Below, piece after piece: positions 15 through 10,708 of a stretch of 38,460 nucleotides of DNA. The notes below the pieces were generated by a model. It saw nothing but the letters and a program-made list of their open reading frames with translations. It did not search any database and was not told where the DNA came from. Numbering within the stretch: position 1 is the first letter of the stretch; every line of letters starts with the position of its first letter. Position numbers and translations under genes: made by a program. Origin of the DNA: Muribaculaceae bacterium (lineage in GTDB: Bacteria > Bacteroidota > Bacteroidia > Bacteroidales > Muribaculaceae); the NCBI GenBank assembly GCA_017624155.1, contig JAGANS010000078.1, forward strand, positions 1 through 38,460. The letters run 5' to 3'.

Positions 15-48
15 AAAAAAAATTCCCCTGCCGATGCTTCGACAGGGG
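15..48 (-). terminator. Intrinsic terminator, minus strand
   Basis: Read on the minus strand, CCCCTG(T)CG and CG(G)CAGGGG form a stem with one mismatch around a short loop, followed by AATTTTTTTT. This is a classic stem plus T-tract. It would end a transcript moving leftward through the 24-bp repeat array. No convincing minus-strand gene is visible to its right, so the transcript it serves is unclear. Confidence 0.6.
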
Positions 49-135
49 TCATTTTTATTTCGCCCGCAAGGGTCAATCTTATTTCGCCCGAAGGGGTCAG
101 TCCCGCGTGCCCGAAGGGGTCAATCACACGCGCCT
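46..135. repeat. Four-copy 24-bp tandem repeat (GGGTCA / CGCCCG units)
   Basis: GGGTCA occurs at 46, 70, 94 and 117, giving a period of 24, 24 and 23 bases. The units share a GGGTCAnTnTTATTTCGCCCG-like pattern that decays to the right. Because 24 is a multiple of three, a 64-codon minus-strand frame (205 to 11) reads as an eight-residue repeat with LTP/MTP and GEIR/GEIK blocks. From memory of the IS21 family, similar arrays of GGGTCA-containing repeats lie at element ends as transposase-binding sites, so this may be the end or a remnant of an IS21-like element whose genes lie left of the window. No transposase is visible here, so that identity is inference. Confidence 0.6.
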
Positions 136-177
136 TTTCCAATTTGCCAAGAAGGTTGCTGAAAAATGAGTTGTGAA

Positions 178-211
178 TGGGGAGGGTCCGATCGATCTTC
201 CCCATTTTTTT
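178..211 (+). terminator. Intrinsic terminator, plus strand
   Basis: TGGGGA at 178-183 pairs with TCCCCA at 199-204 and is followed by seven Ts (205-211). It would end plus-strand transcription entering from the left. It also argues that the next gene does not start at the upstream ATG at 177, which lies inside the terminator. Confidence 0.65.
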
Positions 212-266
212 AGCTCTGAATCGCTACAAAACGCTATTCACGGCACCCCTGATTCCTTACTCATGT

Positions 267-632
267 ATGACAATAATAACTCAATCTATCCTTCAGGGGA
301 ACAAGGAGAACCCTGTTGGACGTGGGCTGTGTGATGATGCCAACGTACAGCAAAATCATCATGAAATAGTGAAAGTTATAATCCCGAAGGAATTTAAGGA
401 TGACGTGCGGGCGTTATGCGATTTGGCGGGCGTAGATGAACTTATTCCCGGGACTACAATCAGAATGACACTTCAGGAGATACTGGAGATCATTCCGAAG
501 GAAAGAAAGAGGAAAGACTGCTACAAGATTTTGGCTGACTTCCTTAAGAATGAAATGAACATAACGCTGGAATTAACTTCCAGAAAAAACAAGACAGTAA
601 AGGCATGGCATACTACAGACGTGAAGATTTAA
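267..632 (+). CDS. Small protein of unknown function in the accessory element
   Basis: I do not recognise this 121-residue protein. The frame is open from 177, but an ATG there would sit inside a terminator hairpin, so I chose the ATG at 267. The chain is polar, with no signal peptide or membrane segment. A central stretch (IPKEFKDDVRALCDLAGVDE) and a basic C-terminal half rich in Lys/Arg suggest a small helical, possibly nucleic-acid-binding protein, but no named domain is visible. It overlaps the start of the HNH-like gene by 28 bases, so the two are probably translated together. Base composition is AT-richer than in the core genes to the right. Confidence 0.55.
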   Translation: MTIITQSILQGNKENPVGRGLCDDANVQQNHHEIVKVIIPKEFKDDVRALCDLAGVDELIPGTTIRMTLQEILEIIPKERKRKDCYKILADFLKNEMNITLELTSRKNKTVKAWHTTDVKI

Positions 633-1591
633 GAAAATACTGGGCCAACTATACATTCATAAGCAGTGATGGTCTCCATGTTGAAAGAGATTATAAGGAT
701 AATGGTACACTGAAGACATACGAGCCTACCATATATCAAGACTCAAACACCAAACGGAGATACATCACCATAAAGAAATATGGGACAGCATATATAGATG
801 AAATGGTTATCGCGTGTTATTGTGCGCCGAAACCCAATGATGGCAAGAGATATGTCGTGCATCACAAGGACTGGAATTTCGGGAATGACCATAAGAACAA
901 CCTTGAATGGGTTGAGGAAACTCCTGAATATACAGCTGAGAGAGCAGAGAAAATGAAGGAATATCTGAGGGCAAAGAGACTCCAGTGGTATAAAGACCGG
1001 AAGATAACGGTAGATGAGAAGAAAGGTATCATTAAACAGGGTGGCGTAGTTCTTCCGGTTTATAACTCTATTTCTGACAGCGATCTCGGCTACCTGTTCC
1101 ATACGACCACTCCAAAAGTTGATTACAGCTATAAAGTGAAATATGCTAATTCCGGCCAGATAAGATATGAGTCATCATCCTTGGAAGTCGATAAGGTCAT
1201 GGCGGATTTTGGATTAGTATACGGGAATAAGGAGAATCTCAAAGAACCGGTCATCCTCCATGTCAACCATGATTTCCTTGATTTCACTCCCTATAATCTT
1301 ATCTGGTGTGAAAAATCTGATCCTGATTATGCCGCATATCAAAAGAAGGCACTTGAGGATAAGTTGGCTCAGGATAAGGTGAGCAACGGAAGATGGCTGT
1401 CACCGAGCGAATGGAATGTACTGTATGGCGGTATAGACGATTATCAGGACTGGAGCGATATGAAAGGGAAGGATCCCAGTTGGACTCCTGAAAGGATTGC
1501 TCAGGAAATAGATGAAATCAAGAAGAGGAAAAAGGAGAATACAATCCCTGCAACCTCTATCATGGATATTAATAAGAATCAGGAGCGCTGA
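605..1591 (+). CDS. HNH-type protein with one intact and one degenerate HNH-like repeat
   Basis: The protein has 328 residues. Residues about 84-109 (VVHHKDWNFGNDHKNNLEW) match the His-His...Asn...Asn-Leu-x-Trp core of the HNH_3/NUMOD-associated endonuclease family common in phages and mobile elements. A second stretch at about 216-245 (LHVNHDFLDFTPYNLIWCEK, then SDPDY) aligns with the first in spacing and hydrophobic pattern but has lost the paired histidines, so it looks like a decayed or repurposed duplicate. The C-terminal third is charged and Lys-rich. Family knowledge suggests metal-dependent DNA nicking or cleavage, but free-standing HNH-like proteins may act only in DNA binding, so nuclease activity is inferred. 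The gene overlaps the small gene before it and precedes the hairpin-rich region and the helicase-primase, which points to element replication or mobility. Start ATG at 605. Confidence 0.65.
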   Translation: MAYYRREDLRKYWANYTFISSDGLHVERDYKDNGTLKTYEPTIYQDSNTKRRYITIKKYGTAYIDEMVIACYCAPKPNDGKRYVVHHKDWNFGNDHKNNLEWVEETPEYTAERAEKMKEYLRAKRLQWYKDRKITVDEKKGIIKQGGVVLPVYNSISDSDLGYLFHTTTPKVDYSYKVKYANSGQIRYESSSLEVDKVMADFGLVYGNKENLKEPVILHVNHDFLDFTPYNLIWCEKSDPDYAAYQKKALEDKLAQDKVSNGRWLSPSEWNVLYGGIDDYQDWSDMKGKDPSWTPERIAQEIDEIKKRKKENTIPATSIMDINKNQER

Positions 1592-1606
1592 CCAACGGCC
1601 AGCCTC

Positions 1607-1805
1607 CACAGCTGACGCTGTGTGTGAGTGTTTGTTATTGGTAGTCCACCGTAAGGTGGAATAAAAAAGTCGGCAAATCACGGTATTCTGCTATATATAA
1701 GACAGAAATTGATGAAGAAAATATTCCATTCCGGTTTCACCGGATTACCAATATCAACACACTCACACGCATTGCGTAAGCAATGGCGAGTCTTCCTTGA
1801 AGACT
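1607..1805 (+). other. Hairpin-rich structured region upstream of the helicase-primase gene
   Basis: About 200 non-coding bases contain abutting inverted repeats: CACAGC-TGAC-GCTGTG (1607-1622); a long arm 1622-1643 pairing imperfectly with 1746-1768 (about 20 pairs); inside it TCCACC-GTAA-GGTGGA (1645-1660), TTCTG/CAGAA (1686-1690 with 1703-1707) and CCGG-TTTCA-CCGG (1731-1743); then CATTGC-GTAA-GCAATG (1770-1785) and AGTCTTC-CTT-GAAGACT (1789-1805). Two loops are GNRA-type GTAA. No T-tract follows any stem, so this is not a simple terminator. It could be a multibranched structured RNA (leader or ncRNA), a hairpin replication origin for the downstream primase, or a recombination site. The function is not established; the pairings are directly visible. 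Confidence 0.7.
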
Positions 1806-1834
1806 TGTCCTCAACCATTAAACATAATATTATA

Positions 1835-4693
1835 ATGAAAATAATCACAAAAGACATTCCGGAAGGTATAAAATATCTTTCCCATTGGAAAGAGTTTAAC
1901 TCTCTCCCTGTCGGACAGCACTACATTCTGGCGAAAGAAATATGCGGCTGTGGTGCAACCGAAGCATATATTGGCAGTCAAGAACCTATTATAATCGCAA
2001 TGCCAAGAAAGCACCTTCTCTATAATAAGTATAGCAAACACATAGGGGAGAATGTATTTCTTTACCGCTTTCTCGACCGTGAGCAATATTTCAGCGATAA
2101 GACTCCTACCGTAGCTGAACTGGAGGAATTTGACTCTCGCTTTGTCGATTACATTCGATGTGGCGGCACTAAGATTCTTGCAACTTATGACTCTCTCTAT
2201 AAGCTCACCGTCCTGATGCAGCAGGAGGGCGTTGATCTTAACACATTCCGAGTAGTCGTAGATGAGTTTCAGCAAATCATTGGTGACGCACCATTCAAAC
2301 CCGAAATCGAGCATCAGTTTTATATGGCTCTTAAAAAGTTCAAGACTGTAGTGTATTTATCGGCCACCCCGTTTCTTCAATCCTACTTGGAAATGACACC
2401 CCAATTTCGGGACCTGACCATGATACGACTGAAGTGGCCTGAATCTGCCATCAAGACAGCGGATGTACGTCTTATAAAATTATCGAAGTCTATCACCGAA
2501 AAATGCTGTGAGATTATCCGTCAATACAAATCCGGAGAGGCCCCGTCATTAGTCATTGATGGAGAACTGAAGGTGTCAAAGGAGGCTGTATTCTTTCTCA
2601 ACGACGTGAAATCAATCATCAATGTCATCAATAAGGCTGGATTGGCTCCTGAAGAAGTCAATATCCTATGCGCACCCCGAAAAGAGAACTACAAGCGCAT
2701 TAGTGAACTCAACAAGGGCAAAACAAACACTGACCCTAAGTTCGAACGCGGCGAGATTCCCAGACTTGGCGAGACGCACAAGATGTTCACTTTCTGCACC
2801 TCTACCGTTTATATCGGGGCAGATTTCAATTCTGAGTCAGCATACTCATATATCTTTGCCAATCCAAACGTTGAATCGCTGACAATAGACGTTGGCACAG
2901 ATATTCAGCAGATTGTGGGTCGTCAACGCAGAGAAGATAATCCTTTTCAAATGAAGGCTGATTTCTACTATTATTTGAAGAAACCACTCGTCACAGAAGA
3001 AGAGATAATCAAGATAATCGAATCAAAGAGAGAGCGGACAAAGGAGCATCTTGACAACTTTTACTCTGCAAAACATAAAGAAGCCCAATTAAAGTCGATG
3101 GAGGCACTTATCAAAGCCGGTCACATCGACCAGTACTGTTGTATATCCAAAGATGACAAGGGTAATACGACCGTCGTGGAGAACCATCTTATCGCTATAG
3201 CGGAGAAACGAGCATGGGATATAGCCAATACTATATATAGCGGAGACCTTTCTCTGATCAAGGCACTTAAAAATTCAGTCAACATCATACGCGATGTTGA
3301 TTCGACAGATCCGGACGTGAAGAAACTATTCGATGAGTGGGCCAAAGACGGTAAGTTCAAGCGTCAGGCAATGATGTACTGCGAGCTACGTGAACAAATG
3401 CCCGATATGCTTGCCAAGTGTTTCTTTATTCCAACGTCCTTTCATAAATATTACGACGCTCTCGGTCGTAAAGGCTTGGAAGATCTTAAATGGCGACAGG
3501 ATTATATCCGTCAGGCACTGGCTCCCACTCCCGATAATGAGATTCCTCATGAAAAAATTGTTGAGCATCTGACCGCAAAGTTAGTCGAGGGCAAGGAATA
3601 TTCAAAAGAAGACATCAAGCAAATTCTTATTGAAATATATCAGAAACTTGGAGTTAAGGGAAATCCGAGTGCCTCTGACATCGGTAGATATTTCACTATA
3701 AAGCCGTCTTCCATTCGTATCAATAAGAAGAAGGTCGCCACTATCAAGATTATCTCACATTGGCAGAAACGGATAACCCTCTTCAAATCTATTACAAGCG
3801 TCATGAGGCCAATACAGGAAGATGATGCAGATTCAGTATTGTCTGTAATCGAAAAGGGTGATGCGTTTAATCTGAAGAGACGAATAACCAATCTGAGGAC
3901 AGAGACTGAATCAAGTCTTTTTGCCGAGAAGAAAAGCCATCTACCCGTAGCTACTTGGAACGGAGTATTTAATTATAGAGATTCCTCTGGGTGTCAAATC
4001 TATTCTTCTTTAACAGCTCTGGATTTCGACCATATTGAAGACCTTCCCGCGATAGAGACGTGGCTTAAGGGATTCCCATGTGTCTATGCCTACTTCAGAA
4101 CACCAAGCGGTAATGGGGTCAAGGCTATAATTCTCCATGACAATAGACGTAAAGAGAATCACCTTGATCTTTATGCTCAACTACTCAACCATTTTAAGCG
4201 TGAATCACAGGACTCTTCTACGTCAGATATAGGACGTGGCAATTACTTATCATACGACGCCGACCTATGGAGGAACCCCAATCCGGTGCCTTATCACTAC
4301 GAGCCGTCCCCAATACCTTTGAAGCCTGTAGAAAAGACTCATACCATCGTTAAGTCAGCAAGCGGCGAAGACATATTACAGGAAGACGACAATTTGACAA
4401 ATCAATTTCTCAGAAAATTGGAACGCATGATACTCACCGATGAGTCTATCATCAATATTCTGAGGAGGCAGTGGAATCAGACAACAATCACACGAGGCAG
4501 AAACAACACAGCTTTGAGTTATGCCGGAGTCTTGTGTAAGGCCGGGGTAGAACAGACGACAGCCCAGGCATTCATTGAAGAACTCATACCAACGTTACCA
4601 AAGGGGGAAGTGACAAGAGCAGTAAAATATGCTTACAGTCATAACATATTCGGCTCAAACCGCAGGAGATACATTAAGAATAAAGGCCATTGA
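1835..4693 (+). CDS. SF2 helicase fused to BT4734/VirE_N-like primase-polymerase domain
   Basis: The protein has 952 residues from the ATG at 1835. The frame stays open upstream to 1709, but that segment runs through the hairpin region. The N-terminal third is a superfamily 2 helicase: a degenerate P-loop GCGATE (38-43, no lysine), DEFQ Walker B (about 143), SATPF motif III and QIVGRQRR motif VI (about 357). Residues about 715-830 look like the BT4734/VirE N-terminal domain of the archaeo-eukaryotic primase superfamily: LDFDHI with two metal-binding aspartates (about 728), PSGNG (about 757) and YDAD (about 806). The last 100 residues resemble a primase C-terminal helical domain. The fusion would unwind and prime DNA, suggesting replication of the host mobile element. 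Helicase-primase fusions occur in Bacteroides plasmids, phages and integrative elements; activity is inferred from motifs. Confidence 0.75.
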   Translation: MKIITKDIPEGIKYLSHWKEFNSLPVGQHYILAKEICGCGATEAYIGSQEPIIIAMPRKHLLYNKYSKHIGENVFLYRFLDREQYFSDKTPTVAELEEFDSRFVDYIRCGGTKILATYDSLYKLTVLMQQEGVDLNTFRVVVDEFQQIIGDAPFKPEIEHQFYMALKKFKTVVYLSATPFLQSYLEMTPQFRDLTMIRLKWPESAIKTADVRLIKLSKSITEKCCEIIRQYKSGEAPSLVIDGELKVSKEAVFFLNDVKSIINVINKAGLAPEEVNILCAPRKENYKRISELNKGKTNTDPKFERGEIPRLGETHKMFTFCTSTVYIGADFNSESAYSYIFANPNVESLTIDVGTDIQQIVGRQRREDNPFQMKADFYYYLKKPLVTEEEIIKIIESKRERTKEHLDNFYSAKHKEAQLKSMEALIKAGHIDQYCCISKDDKGNTTVVENHLIAIAEKRAWDIANTIYSGDLSLIKALKNSVNIIRDVDSTDPDVKKLFDEWAKDGKFKRQAMMYCELREQMPDMLAKCFFIPTSFHKYYDALGRKGLEDLKWRQDYIRQALAPTPDNEIPHEKIVEHLTAKLVEGKEYSKEDIKQILIEIYQKLGVKGNPSASDIGRYFTIKPSSIRINKKKVATIKIISHWQKRITLFKSITSVMRPIQEDDADSVLSVIEKGDAFNLKRRITNLRTETESSLFAEKKSHLPVATWNGVFNYRDSSGCQIYSSLTALDFDHIEDLPAIETWLKGFPCVYAYFRTPSGNGVKAIILHDNRRKENHLDLYAQLLNHFKRESQDSSTSDIGRGNYLSYDADLWRNPNPVPYHYEPSPIPLKPVEKTHTIVKSASGEDILQEDDNLTNQFLRKLERMILTDESIINILRRQWNQTTITRGRNNTALSYAGVLCKAGVEQTTAQAFIEELIPTLPKGEVTRAVKYAYSHNIFGSNRRRYIKNKGH

Positions 4694-4869: not shown

Positions 4870-4959
4870 TGGCGGAAAGACAGGGATTCGAACCCTGGGT
4901 ACCCGTAAGGGTACAACGGTTTTCGAGACCGTCCCGATCGACCGCTCCGGCATCTTTCC
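4870..4959 (-). tRNA. tRNA-Ser (anticodon CGA)
   Basis: The minus strand folds into a complete class II tRNA. The acceptor stem is GGAAAGA/TCTTTCC, the D stem CCG/CGG and the anticodon arm ACGGT-CTCGAAA-ACCGT with anticodon CGA. A long variable arm (GTACCC-TTAC-GGGTAC) and a T arm (CAGGG-TTCGAAT-CCCTG) follow. Discriminator G and an encoded CCA end (4872-4870) complete it. The anticodon and long variable arm identify it as serine, reading UCG. AT-rich accessory DNA begins right after its 3' end, so it is the likely integration site of the element to its left. Confidence 0.97.
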
Positions 4960-9817: not shown

Positions 9818-10708
9818 TTATTTCAATGATTTGAGTTTTTGCATGGAGCAGGCATCCCCCTGCACAGCAGCAGCTGAATACCAAAATCGGGCATTTTTAA
9901 TACTTTGAGGCACGCCGCGGCCAAGTTCGTAACATCGTGCCAGGCCGGCCTGGGCATCGCGGTTGCCCTTCTCTGCGGCGAGCTTGAAAAGTCGTACTGC
10001 CTCGCCATAATCCCCGGGGACATAATAACCATCGAAGAGCAGTTCGGCCAGACGGGACTGGGCCTCGGGATGTCCGGCATCGGCCGCCTTGCGGTAATTG
10101 CGTGCCGCCATAGTCATGTTGCGGGGTGCGCCATGTCCCATCTCGTAACATACTCCAAGCTGATACTGTGACTGGACATGCCCTTGCTCCGCAGCGATGG
10201 TAAAGTTTACAAATGCTTCTTCAAATTTGTTCTCAGAGAACATTTTCATGCCCTGCATGGCGAATTCCGAGGGGAATGTGATTTCCTCGTGATCTTCTTC
10301 CTCGGTAAGATCAGCCGCAATAAGCGACTTTATATGATTGATTAAAGTAGGGCGCACCGGATGTCTTAAAAGATCAAACTGATTCAGCGGAGAAAGCAAC
10401 AGGTCAATCCCCTCGGGGATTGGCTTATTGTCGAGGATATATGGCAAGATGTATTCCTGAGGTATACGTTTATATGCGTAATGTAGCTCACATTTTACGT
10501 AAAATGAGGTCGTCGAATTTTCACTTACCAGGAACAGAAACAGCTTGCTCGCCGATATGGCTTTGGCGAGGCGATCTGAAAATTCACTGCCGATCTGCAT
10601 TTTACGGTCAATATAATATCTGATGCCTATGGCATCAAATGCGCTGCAAATCTGTTCGGCAACTTCCGAATCGCGGCGTGAATAGCAAATGAATACATCG
10701 TAGTCCAT
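9818..10708 (-). CDS. TIR domain protein with Sel1-like repeats
   Basis: The protein has 296 residues. Residues 1-130 form a TIR domain: the opening DYDVFICYSRRDSEVAEQI is the box 1 pattern, and SFYVKCELHYAY places Glu74 where bacterial TIR NADases carry their catalytic glutamate. Residues about 148-296 are Sel1/TPR-like repeats (AAEQGHVQSQYQLGVCYEMG, AADAGHPEAQSRLAELLFDG, then AAEKGNRDAQAGLARCYELG). No signal peptide is present, so it is cytoplasmic. TIR domains in bacteria often consume NAD+ or make signalling nucleotides in antiphage defence, with repeat domains sensing a partner. It starts six bases after the ygiQ stop and is the last gene of a uvrB-ygiQ-TIR operon, which would be unusual for a stand-alone defence gene. 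Enzyme activity is inferred. Confidence 0.85.
   Translation of the reverse strand: MDYDVFICYSRRDSEVAEQICSAFDAIGIRYYIDRKMQIGSEFSDRLAKAISASKLFLFLVSENSTTSFYVKCELHYAYKRIPQEYILPYILDNKPIPEGIDLLLSPLNQFDLLRHPVRPTLINHIKSLIAADLTEEEDHEEITFPSEFAMQGMKMFSENKFEEAFVNFTIAAEQGHVQSQYQLGVCYEMGHGAPRNMTMAARNYRKAADAGHPEAQSRLAELLFDGYYVPGDYGEAVRLFKLAAEKGNRDAQAGLARCYELGRGVPQSIKNARFWYSAAAVQGDACSMQKLKSLK

What the first reader, a model, noticed from the sequence alone, without database searches (positions are those of the whole stretch)
1607..1805. Densely folded 200-base region directly upstream of a helicase-primase gene
At least seven inverted repeats sit edge to edge: two have GTAA (GNRA) loops, and a roughly 20-bp closing stem (1622-1643 with 1746-1768) encloses three more. 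It is neither a terminator (no T-tract after any stem) nor coding in an obvious way. A multibranched fold with flush hairpins beside a primase-helicase suggests either a structured RNA (ncRNA or cis-regulator) or a single-strand-initiation origin for the element. The mismatches in the closing stem would be informative if compensated in relatives.
Basis: seen in the sequence. Interest (0 to 1): 0.78.

Follow-up and report, generated by a model that had tools for sequence, protein, structure and literature searches.

The report
Conserved folding hairpin beside helicase-primase gene
A 200-letter stretch of what looks like a mobile DNA island in a bacterium keeps folding into the same branched hairpin in relatives even though its letters change, and it sits just in front of the island's DNA-copying gene, so it may be where copying of the island starts (or, second choice, an RNA switch for that gene).

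Summary
Window 1600-1810 folds far better than shuffles (z -7.9 as RNA, -6.9 as DNA; 0 of 200 each). It is not coding, matches no Rfam family and has no terminator-like site on the sense strand. A fold of the same plan lies directly before the SF2-like helicase/BT4734-primase gene in 7 of 7 fused relatives with upstream DNA (three Muribaculaceae-family genomes, two copies in a Phocaeicola MAG, an IMG/VR contig, a 'Bacteriophage sp.' record). Arms are rewritten but stay complementary (GTGGAATA/TATTCCAT becomes GTGTTATA/TATAACAT). Two of the 7 (L047, L066) were placed by position and arms, not by a significant model score. The inner loop is near-constant in length (56-63 nt) and AT-rich. One relative lacks the endonuclease gene, so the fold follows the helicase-primase. 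Best reading: a stem-loop replication (single-strand initiation) origin that works like those of pRN1 and RSF1010, about 0.5. Rival: structured mRNA leader, about 0.3; conserved pairing is stronger on the mRNA-sense strand, which fits RNA and one-stranded DNA alike. Nine literature searches showed no description of it. New variant of a known kind.

The parts
1596..1623 (+). 5' flanking hairpin(s); L041 and L043 have a GACTG.CC...GG.CAGCC hairpin at the same place
1622..1643 (+). 5' half of the long closing stem (P1 and most of P2; P2 arm TTGGTAGT is 1638-1645)
1645..1660 (+). CCACC-GTAA-GGTGG hairpin, which competes with the 5' arm of P3
1656..1663 (+). P3 5' arm GTGGAATA (GTGTTATA in L066, GTTATATG in L047)
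1663..1668 (+). A-tract kept in all 7 compared sequences; faces A's in four (window, L041, L043, L063), T's in L066, partly T's in L042 and L047 (by eye)
   Evidence: sequences
1664..1721 (+). 58-nt AT-rich loop of P3 (69% AT) with a short internal stem-loop around TTCTGCTATATATAAGACAGAA
1722..1729 (+). P3 3' arm TATTCCAT
1731..1744 (+). CCGGT-TTC-ACCGG hairpin
1744..1768 (+). 3' half of P2 (ATTACCAA 1744-1751) and of the closing stem
1770..1786 (+). GCATTGC-GTAA-GCAATG hairpin
1790..1807 (+). AGTCTTC-CTT-GAAGACT hairpin, present as TCTTC...GAAGA in L041 and L043
1835..4693 (+). helicase-primase gene (952 aa): helicase part with SF2-like motifs recognised by eye (GCGATE, DEFQ, SATP, GRQR) and BT4734-like AEP primase domain
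605..1591 (+). homing-endonuclease-like HNH gene (HNH_3 below its Pfam cut-off; PHROG and PADLOC homing-endonuclease matches)
177..632 (+). small ORF without Pfam, PHROG or PADLOC match, overlapping the HNH gene; relatives have a like ORF (by eye)
4870..4959 (-). tRNA-Ser beside whose 3' end the island sits (also in L041 and L043)

Best explanation
It is the stem-loop replication (single-strand initiation) origin of a Bacteroidales mobile island, read by the helicase-primase encoded next to it. Proposed steps: (1) the island leaves the chromosome or is otherwise activated [inferred]; (2) the SF2-like helicase part opens the AT-rich inner loop [inferred]; (3) the freed strand folds into the branched hairpin, whose pairing rather than sequence is under selection [pairing shown; folding in the cell inferred]; (4) the folded stem places helicase and primase, and the BT4734-type primase lays a primer at the exposed single strand, perhaps at a GTG as discussed for pRN1 and RSF1010 [inferred]. 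Because islands differ in their arms, the hairpin could also be the specificity tag of its replicon [inferred].
For: Fold z -6.9 with DNA and -7.9 with RNA parameters. A fold of the same plan before the helicase-primase start in 7 of 7 fused relatives with upstream DNA: L041, L043, L042, L044, L063, L066, L047. Arms rewritten but complementary, 7 sequences (L044 left out, same core as L042): P2 52 of 56 cells paired (7 of 5000 arm shuffles reach it), P3 53 of 56 (109 of 5000). In the 3 closest sequences 7 of 51 pairs change on both sides (6 of 500 shuffles reach that) and no shuffle of 500 reaches the paired fraction (the structure was derived from the same alignment). P3 loop 58,58,58,56,58,56,63 nt; loop 69-80% AT against 57-63% for the whole region; 73-105 nt from P3 to the ATG. 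L063 keeps the fold with no endonuclease ORF between the small ORF and the fold. Precedents: pRN1, whose AEP primase-helicase plasmid needs an adjacent 100-nt stem-loop (21-nt stem, 58-nt loop at 75 C), conserved in structure with low sequence conservation (PMC4234260, abstract and passages); RSF1010, whose RepB' primase reads the ssiA hairpin (PMC4434180 passages).
Against: No replication assay. The island was seen only on contigs, mostly MAG contigs; no PF00589 integrase on the three contigs G000:C20, G405:C13, G014:C55 and no exact 13-mer att-like repeat. Other BT4734-type primases show no such upstream inverted repeat more often than control genes (1 of 18 vs 2 of 30; fold z p=0.11). Stronger conserved pairing on the + strand is also what an RNA would show. 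No DnaA box with up to 1 mismatch in 6 of 7 regions, one weak site in L063. Iteron-like repeats at 43-131 could be the origin instead. The pRN1 stem-loop lies 3' of its gene and its helicase is SF3; here the fold is 5' and the helicase SF2-like. P3 covariation rests on two rewritten arms. + strand folds of L042 and L063 are only modest (z -2.6, -1.9), L041 fails the ungapped inverted-repeat test (14 of 40 shuffles as good), and GTG/CAC enrichment is seen in 2 of 7 only.
Confidence: 0.5

Rival explanations
1. A structured RNA in the 5' leader of the helicase-primase message (cis-regulator or processed small RNA) that controls the amount of replication protein, perhaps by binding the protein itself.
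For: The consensus fold of the 3 closest sequences is much stronger on the mRNA-sense strand (-40.1 vs -26.8, ratio 1.50; 140 RNase P triples of equal mean identity give 1.22, sd 0.12); 17 G-U against 2 A-C cells on + (the fold chosen favours G-U). It lies in the gap before the gene's start codon, downstream of co-directional genes, and an exact search for a Bacteroides-type promoter (consensus recalled) in the region and 150 nt upstream found none in 7 sequences.
Against: The last 26 nt before the ATG are unpaired in the window's fold, so the start is not masked; no terminator-like site on the + strand; GNRA loops not kept (by eye); the A-tract is kept although what it faces changes; no Rfam match. 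Per-sequence strand tests show no clear preference, but they lack power, since RNase P gives 39:36.
Confidence: 0.3
2. Double-stranded operator or cruciform: inverted repeats bound as DNA by an island protein.
For: Both strands fold about equally well one by one; arms could be half-sites that co-evolve with a protein.
Against: A long P1 with wobble pairs and mismatches, and the strand asymmetry of the conserved fold, are not expected of a double-stranded site.
Confidence: 0.1
3. Part of the homing-endonuclease cassette (intron-like or guide RNA of the HNH gene).
For: An HNH_3-like ORF lies directly upstream in the window and 5 relatives (L041, L042, L043, L044, L066), above the Pfam cut-off only in L042 and L044; the ORF in L047 looks GIY-YIG/NUMOD3-like by eye but has no Pfam match.
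Against: L063 keeps the fold with no endonuclease ORF there; no intron or HEARO family match in Rfam.
Confidence: 0.05

Closest known systems
pRN1-family stem-loop origin (AEP primase-helicase ORF904, Sulfolobus; also proposed for some bacteriophages)
   Same: Large stem-loop beside an AEP primase-helicase gene, structure kept with little sequence kept, 58-nt loop, GTG/CAC motifs (PMC4234260, abstract and passages)
   Different: There it is 3' of the gene and a simple stem-loop, helicase SF3; here 5', branched, flanked by extra hairpins, helicase SF2-like, Bacteroidales islands; the pRN1 authors themselves say direct proof of origin function is missing
RSF1010 ssiA/ssiB with RepB' primase
   Same: Hairpin in single-stranded DNA read by an AEP-type primase; iterons, helicase and primase work together (PMC4434180 and PMC4234260 passages)
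   Different: ssi sites are 40 nt; here ~200 nt; function untested
Herpes simplex oriS and its origin-binding SF2 helicase (UL9)
   Same: SF2 helicase, inverted boxes round an AT-rich spacer, hairpin form of the opened strand (PMC12543377 passages); L066 has three copies of its 8-nt box in two inverted pairs
   Different: No homology of the helicases shown; a full three-box pattern was noted by eye only in L066; analogy only
Bacterial cis-regulatory leaders / Rfam families
   Same: Conserved fold before a start codon
   Different: No Rfam match at gathering score in the region; the 4 weak hits at E 0.7-4.7 are far below their cut-offs

Membership tests
pRN1-type stem-loop origin | adjacent gene encodes AEP primase plus helicase | tested here: met
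   BT4734-like_N E 4.2e-12; helicase motifs seen by eye in the alignment, Pfam DEAD only at E 0.09
pRN1-type stem-loop origin | stem-loop conserved in structure despite sequence change | tested here: met
pRN1-type stem-loop origin | SF3 helicase and winged-helix domain; stem-loop 3' of the gene | tested here: not met
   motifs are SF2-like, no SF3 or winged-helix Pfam match, fold is 5'; so not filed as a member
pRN1-type stem-loop origin | required in cis for replication | not testable with these tools
   needs a replication assay
RSF1010 ssi site | primase binds the hairpin and primes 3' of it | not testable with these tools
   needs a biochemical assay
Rfam RNA families | match at gathering score | tested here: not met
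   none in 1600-1810; the window's only match is the tRNA
intrinsic terminator | GC stem followed by U-tract on the sense strand | tested here: not met
   3 hits in 1400-2000, all on the - strand
mRNA leader (cis-regulator) | conserved fold stronger on the transcribed strand | tested here: met
   does not separate RNA from one-stranded DNA
mRNA leader (cis-regulator) | fold masks the start codon or makes a terminator | tested here: not met
   (window only)
homing-endonuclease intron / HEARO-type RNA | occurs together with the endonuclease | tested here: not met
   L063 has the fold without an endonuclease ORF beside it

The most novel reading that the evidence does not exclude
A hairpin origin class in which an SF2-like helicase fused to a BT4734-type primase reads an element-specific folded strand, as herpes UL9 reads the hairpin of oriS: boxes round an AT-rich loop, arms rewritten from island to island so that each replicon knows its own origin, travelling with homing-endonuclease genes through Bacteroidales islands beside defence genes, and shared in simpler form by the larger helicase family of big IMG/VR contigs.
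Probability: 0.2. Interest if true: 0.75.

Novelty: new variant of a known kind. Interest (0 to 1): 0.55.

Why it matters
BT4734-type primases are listed as an AEP family not associated with any clade (PMC5862659 passage), and none of my 9 literature searches showed an origin described for them. A conserved but rewritten hairpin beside the gene makes directly testable where such islands start copying and how a primase-helicase picks its own replicon.

Tried and rejected
Coding: no frame open in all of 7 sequences. Known RNA: Rfam at gathering score and at E up to 5 gave nothing convincing. Terminator/attenuator: none on the + strand. Endonuclease-tied RNA: L063 lacks the endonuclease ORF. Repeat elsewhere in the host: one copy in the genome held.

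General rule 'BT4734 primases have upstream hairpins': not supported (inverted repeat in the top 2 of 41 for 1 of 18 regions vs 2 of 30 controls; z below -3 in 4 of 18 vs 3 of 30). Of the 21 matches I used 18; the window's own L155, the partial L156 and L161 were dropped. Wider helicase family: best inverted repeat in the top 2 of 41 for 21 of 71 upstream regions, that is 6 of the 7 core regions (L041 failed, 14 of 40) and 15 of 64 others, against 2 of 30 control genes measured with a slightly different loop limit and region length; suggestive only. L065 (G741), a relative of the wider kind, shows no fold (z +1.5). Pattern scan of IMG/VR gave 3 matches: L060 scored E 0.77 and looks like a phage stretch without the helicase, L061 and L062 got no model match up to E 1; I judged all three chance. 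Per-sequence wobble tests: no power. Covariance model R1: 5 of 397 family genomes at E up to 0.5, 3 strong and 2 weak; 2 of 49 genus genomes at E up to 0.01: a rare element. Model scores for L047 (E 0.4) and L066 (E 0.82; 0.14 in the unfiltered search) are not significant by themselves; one search lists 25 matches up to E 10, about half of them at chance level. The fragment L038 (48% identity over 131 residues) was not examined.

Full report
Observation. Window 1600-1810 folds far better than chance: RNA fold -81.7 kcal/mol, z -7.92, 0 of 200 shuffles; reverse strand z -6.62, 0 of 200; DNA parameters z -6.93, 0 of 200. Rfam has no match there.

Surroundings. The order is: a 23-nt direct repeat in three copies at 62-131 with a partial fourth before it; a small ORF (177-632); an HNH gene of the homing-endonuclease kind (605-1591; HNH_3 E 3.7e-4, 20.5 bits, below its cut-off; PHROG 959 E 6.9e-9; PADLOC homing endonuclease E 5.5e-5); the folded region; a 952-aa helicase-primase (1835-4693; BT4734-like primase domain E 4.2e-12; helicase motifs GCGATE, DEFQ, SATP, GRQR read by eye in the alignment; Pfam DEAD only at E 0.09); a tRNA-Ser on the other strand (4870-4959). 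The window is the whole contig G000:C20, so the left end of the island is not seen. In L041 and L043 the same gene again ends beside a tRNA-Ser; no tRNA was found in L042, L044, L047, L063 or L066. This looks like an island at a tRNA 3' end; no PF00589 integrase lies on the three contigs and no att-like 13-mer repeat was found.

Relatives. Seven have DNA upstream of the gene: L041 (57% identity), L043 (66% over the helicase part), L042 and L044 (48%, two copies in one Phocaeicola MAG), L066 (48%, IMG/VR), L063 (MT836525.1, 47-48%), L047 (40%). L041, L043 and L047 correspond to G014, G405 and G339, which share the window's family; the record title of L043 says Muribaculaceae. L016/L046, L045 and L017 are cut at contig ends. 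The seven all have a fold in the gap before the gene. z on + / - strand: window -8.0/-6.5, L041 -7.8/-5.2, L043 -7.1/-6.6, L042 -2.6/-4.0, L063 -1.9/-4.4, L066 -7.9/-6.3, L047 -5.4/-4.2 (L044 left out because its core equals that of L042). A covariance model from window, L003 (=L041) and L014 (=L043) finds L042, L044 and L063 (E 9.7e-5, 5.3e-5, 2.2e-6) and L047 and L066 only weakly (E 0.4, 0.82), though at the syntenic place.

Conservation of pairing. P2 has three different sequences (TTGGTAGT with RYTACCAW in three, ACATAA with TTATGT in three, GGATGGTA with TACCATCC in L047); 52 of 56 cells pair, reached by 7 of 5000 shuffles of the arms. P3 is GTGGAATA with TATTCCA and a variable last letter in four, with TTTTCCAT in L042, GTGTTATA with TATAACAT in L066 and GTTATATG with TACATAAC in L047; 53 of 56 cells pair, reached by 109 of 5000 (7 sequences, helices set by hand). 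In the three closest sequences 7 of 51 pairs change on both sides (6 of 500 shuffles reach that), and no shuffle of 500 reaches the paired fraction or the covariation score; the structure came from the same alignment, which favours it. P3 encloses 56-63 nt (58 in four of seven), 69-80% AT, and ends 73-105 nt before the start codon. A six-A tract follows at the end of the 5' arm in all seven (preceded by AT in six, by TG in L047); it faces A's in four, T's in L066 and partly T's in L042 and L047 (by eye).

RNA or DNA. The consensus fold of the closest three is -40.1 on + and -26.8 on -, ratio 1.50; 140 RNase P triples of the same mean identity (0.70) give 1.22 (sd 0.12), and 24 windows of the neighbouring gene, cut at equal offsets, average -9.4 (minimum -23.6). 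With G-U forbidden both strands are equal (-22.6, -22.7). So the sense strand is the one kept foldable in these three. That argues against a plain double-stranded operator, but an mRNA and a one-stranded DNA origin both fit. Tests on single sequences show no clear strand preference, and the RNase P control shows that they cannot (39:36). Against an RNA switch: start codon free, no terminator, GNRA loops not kept. For an origin: near-constant AT-rich loop, A-tract kept whatever it faces, strict neighbourhood to a helicase-primase, no dependence on the endonuclease (L063 has none there).

What it works like. pRN1: an AEP primase-helicase whose plasmid needs a 100-nt stem-loop next to the gene, 21-nt stem and 58-nt loop at 75 C, conserved in structure with very low sequence conservation, with GTG/CAC motifs, also proposed for some phages; the authors state that they have no direct evidence that it is the origin (PMC4234260, abstract and passages). 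RSF1010: the RepB' primase reads a hairpin in single-stranded DNA (PMC4434180 passages). Herpes simplex: an SF2 helicase binds inverted boxes round an AT-rich spacer and a hairpin form of the opened strand (PMC12543377 passages); L066 has three copies of its 8-nt box at 3823, 3846 and 3910. GTG in the 5' half plus CAC in the 3' half is enriched in the window (10; shuffles mean 3.9, 0 of 1000) and L043 (13; 0 of 1000) but not in the other five. It is not filed as a pRN1-type member because helicase class and position differ.

How general. Other BT4734 primases lack a comparable upstream fold (1 of 18 vs 2 of 30 controls), although a second, separate BT4734 gene in L042 has one. The wider helicase family (28-34% identity; 43 of the 44 IMG/VR loci, a list that may be capped) sits in up to three listed copies per contig on contigs of 28-353 kb; 2 of 10 neighbour genes scanned match T5orf172/MUG113 (GIY-YIG kind, recalled), both right after the helicase. 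Inverted repeats with A/T inner arms round a loop of 34-44 nt stand before the gene in L076, L077, L079, L082, L084 and L090. This is suggestive only: 15 of 64 such regions pass the shuffle test.

Literature. Nine searches of the held library showed no description of this element; I saw listings, and passages of four papers (PMC5862659, PMC12543377, PMC4434180, PMC4234260). Most subscription papers are not held.

Verdict. A real, selected, non-coding, single-strand fold tied to a helicase-primase; most likely a stem-loop origin (0.5), next a leader RNA (0.3).

Noticed in passing
window 43-131: Iteron-like direct repeats: three copies of a 23-nt unit (62-131) and a partial fourth (43-66) at the contig start, upstream of the small ORF; could be replication iterons or an operator.
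   Followed up: partly
L066 6991-9791; L063 1589-2452; L118 5224-10038: Defence-like genes beside the related islands: Lamassu LmuA/LmuB, a TIR protein matching PDC-S66, and TIR/SLOG genes of Thoeris kind.
   Followed up: partly
L067-L109: The helicase family without fused primase occurs in up to three listed copies on single IMG/VR contigs of 28-353 kb; two are followed directly by T5orf172/MUG113 genes (L070, L092).
   Followed up: partly
L042 9441-9700 (- strand): A second, stand-alone BT4734-type primase gene also has a long hairpin (GAGTGTAGAA...TTCTACACTC) just upstream.
   Followed up: partly
L043 5001-7855: The helicase-primase of this relative is split by a stop codon between the helicase and primase parts.
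   Followed up: no
window 9818-10708 (- strand): TIR domain plus Sel1 repeats in one protein.
   Followed up: no
helicase alignment A6, window residues 38-42: Where SF2 helicases carry a Walker A lysine (recalled: GxGKT), this family has GCGxT, with G38, C39, G40 and T42 invariant in 42 of 42 aligned members.
   Followed up: no
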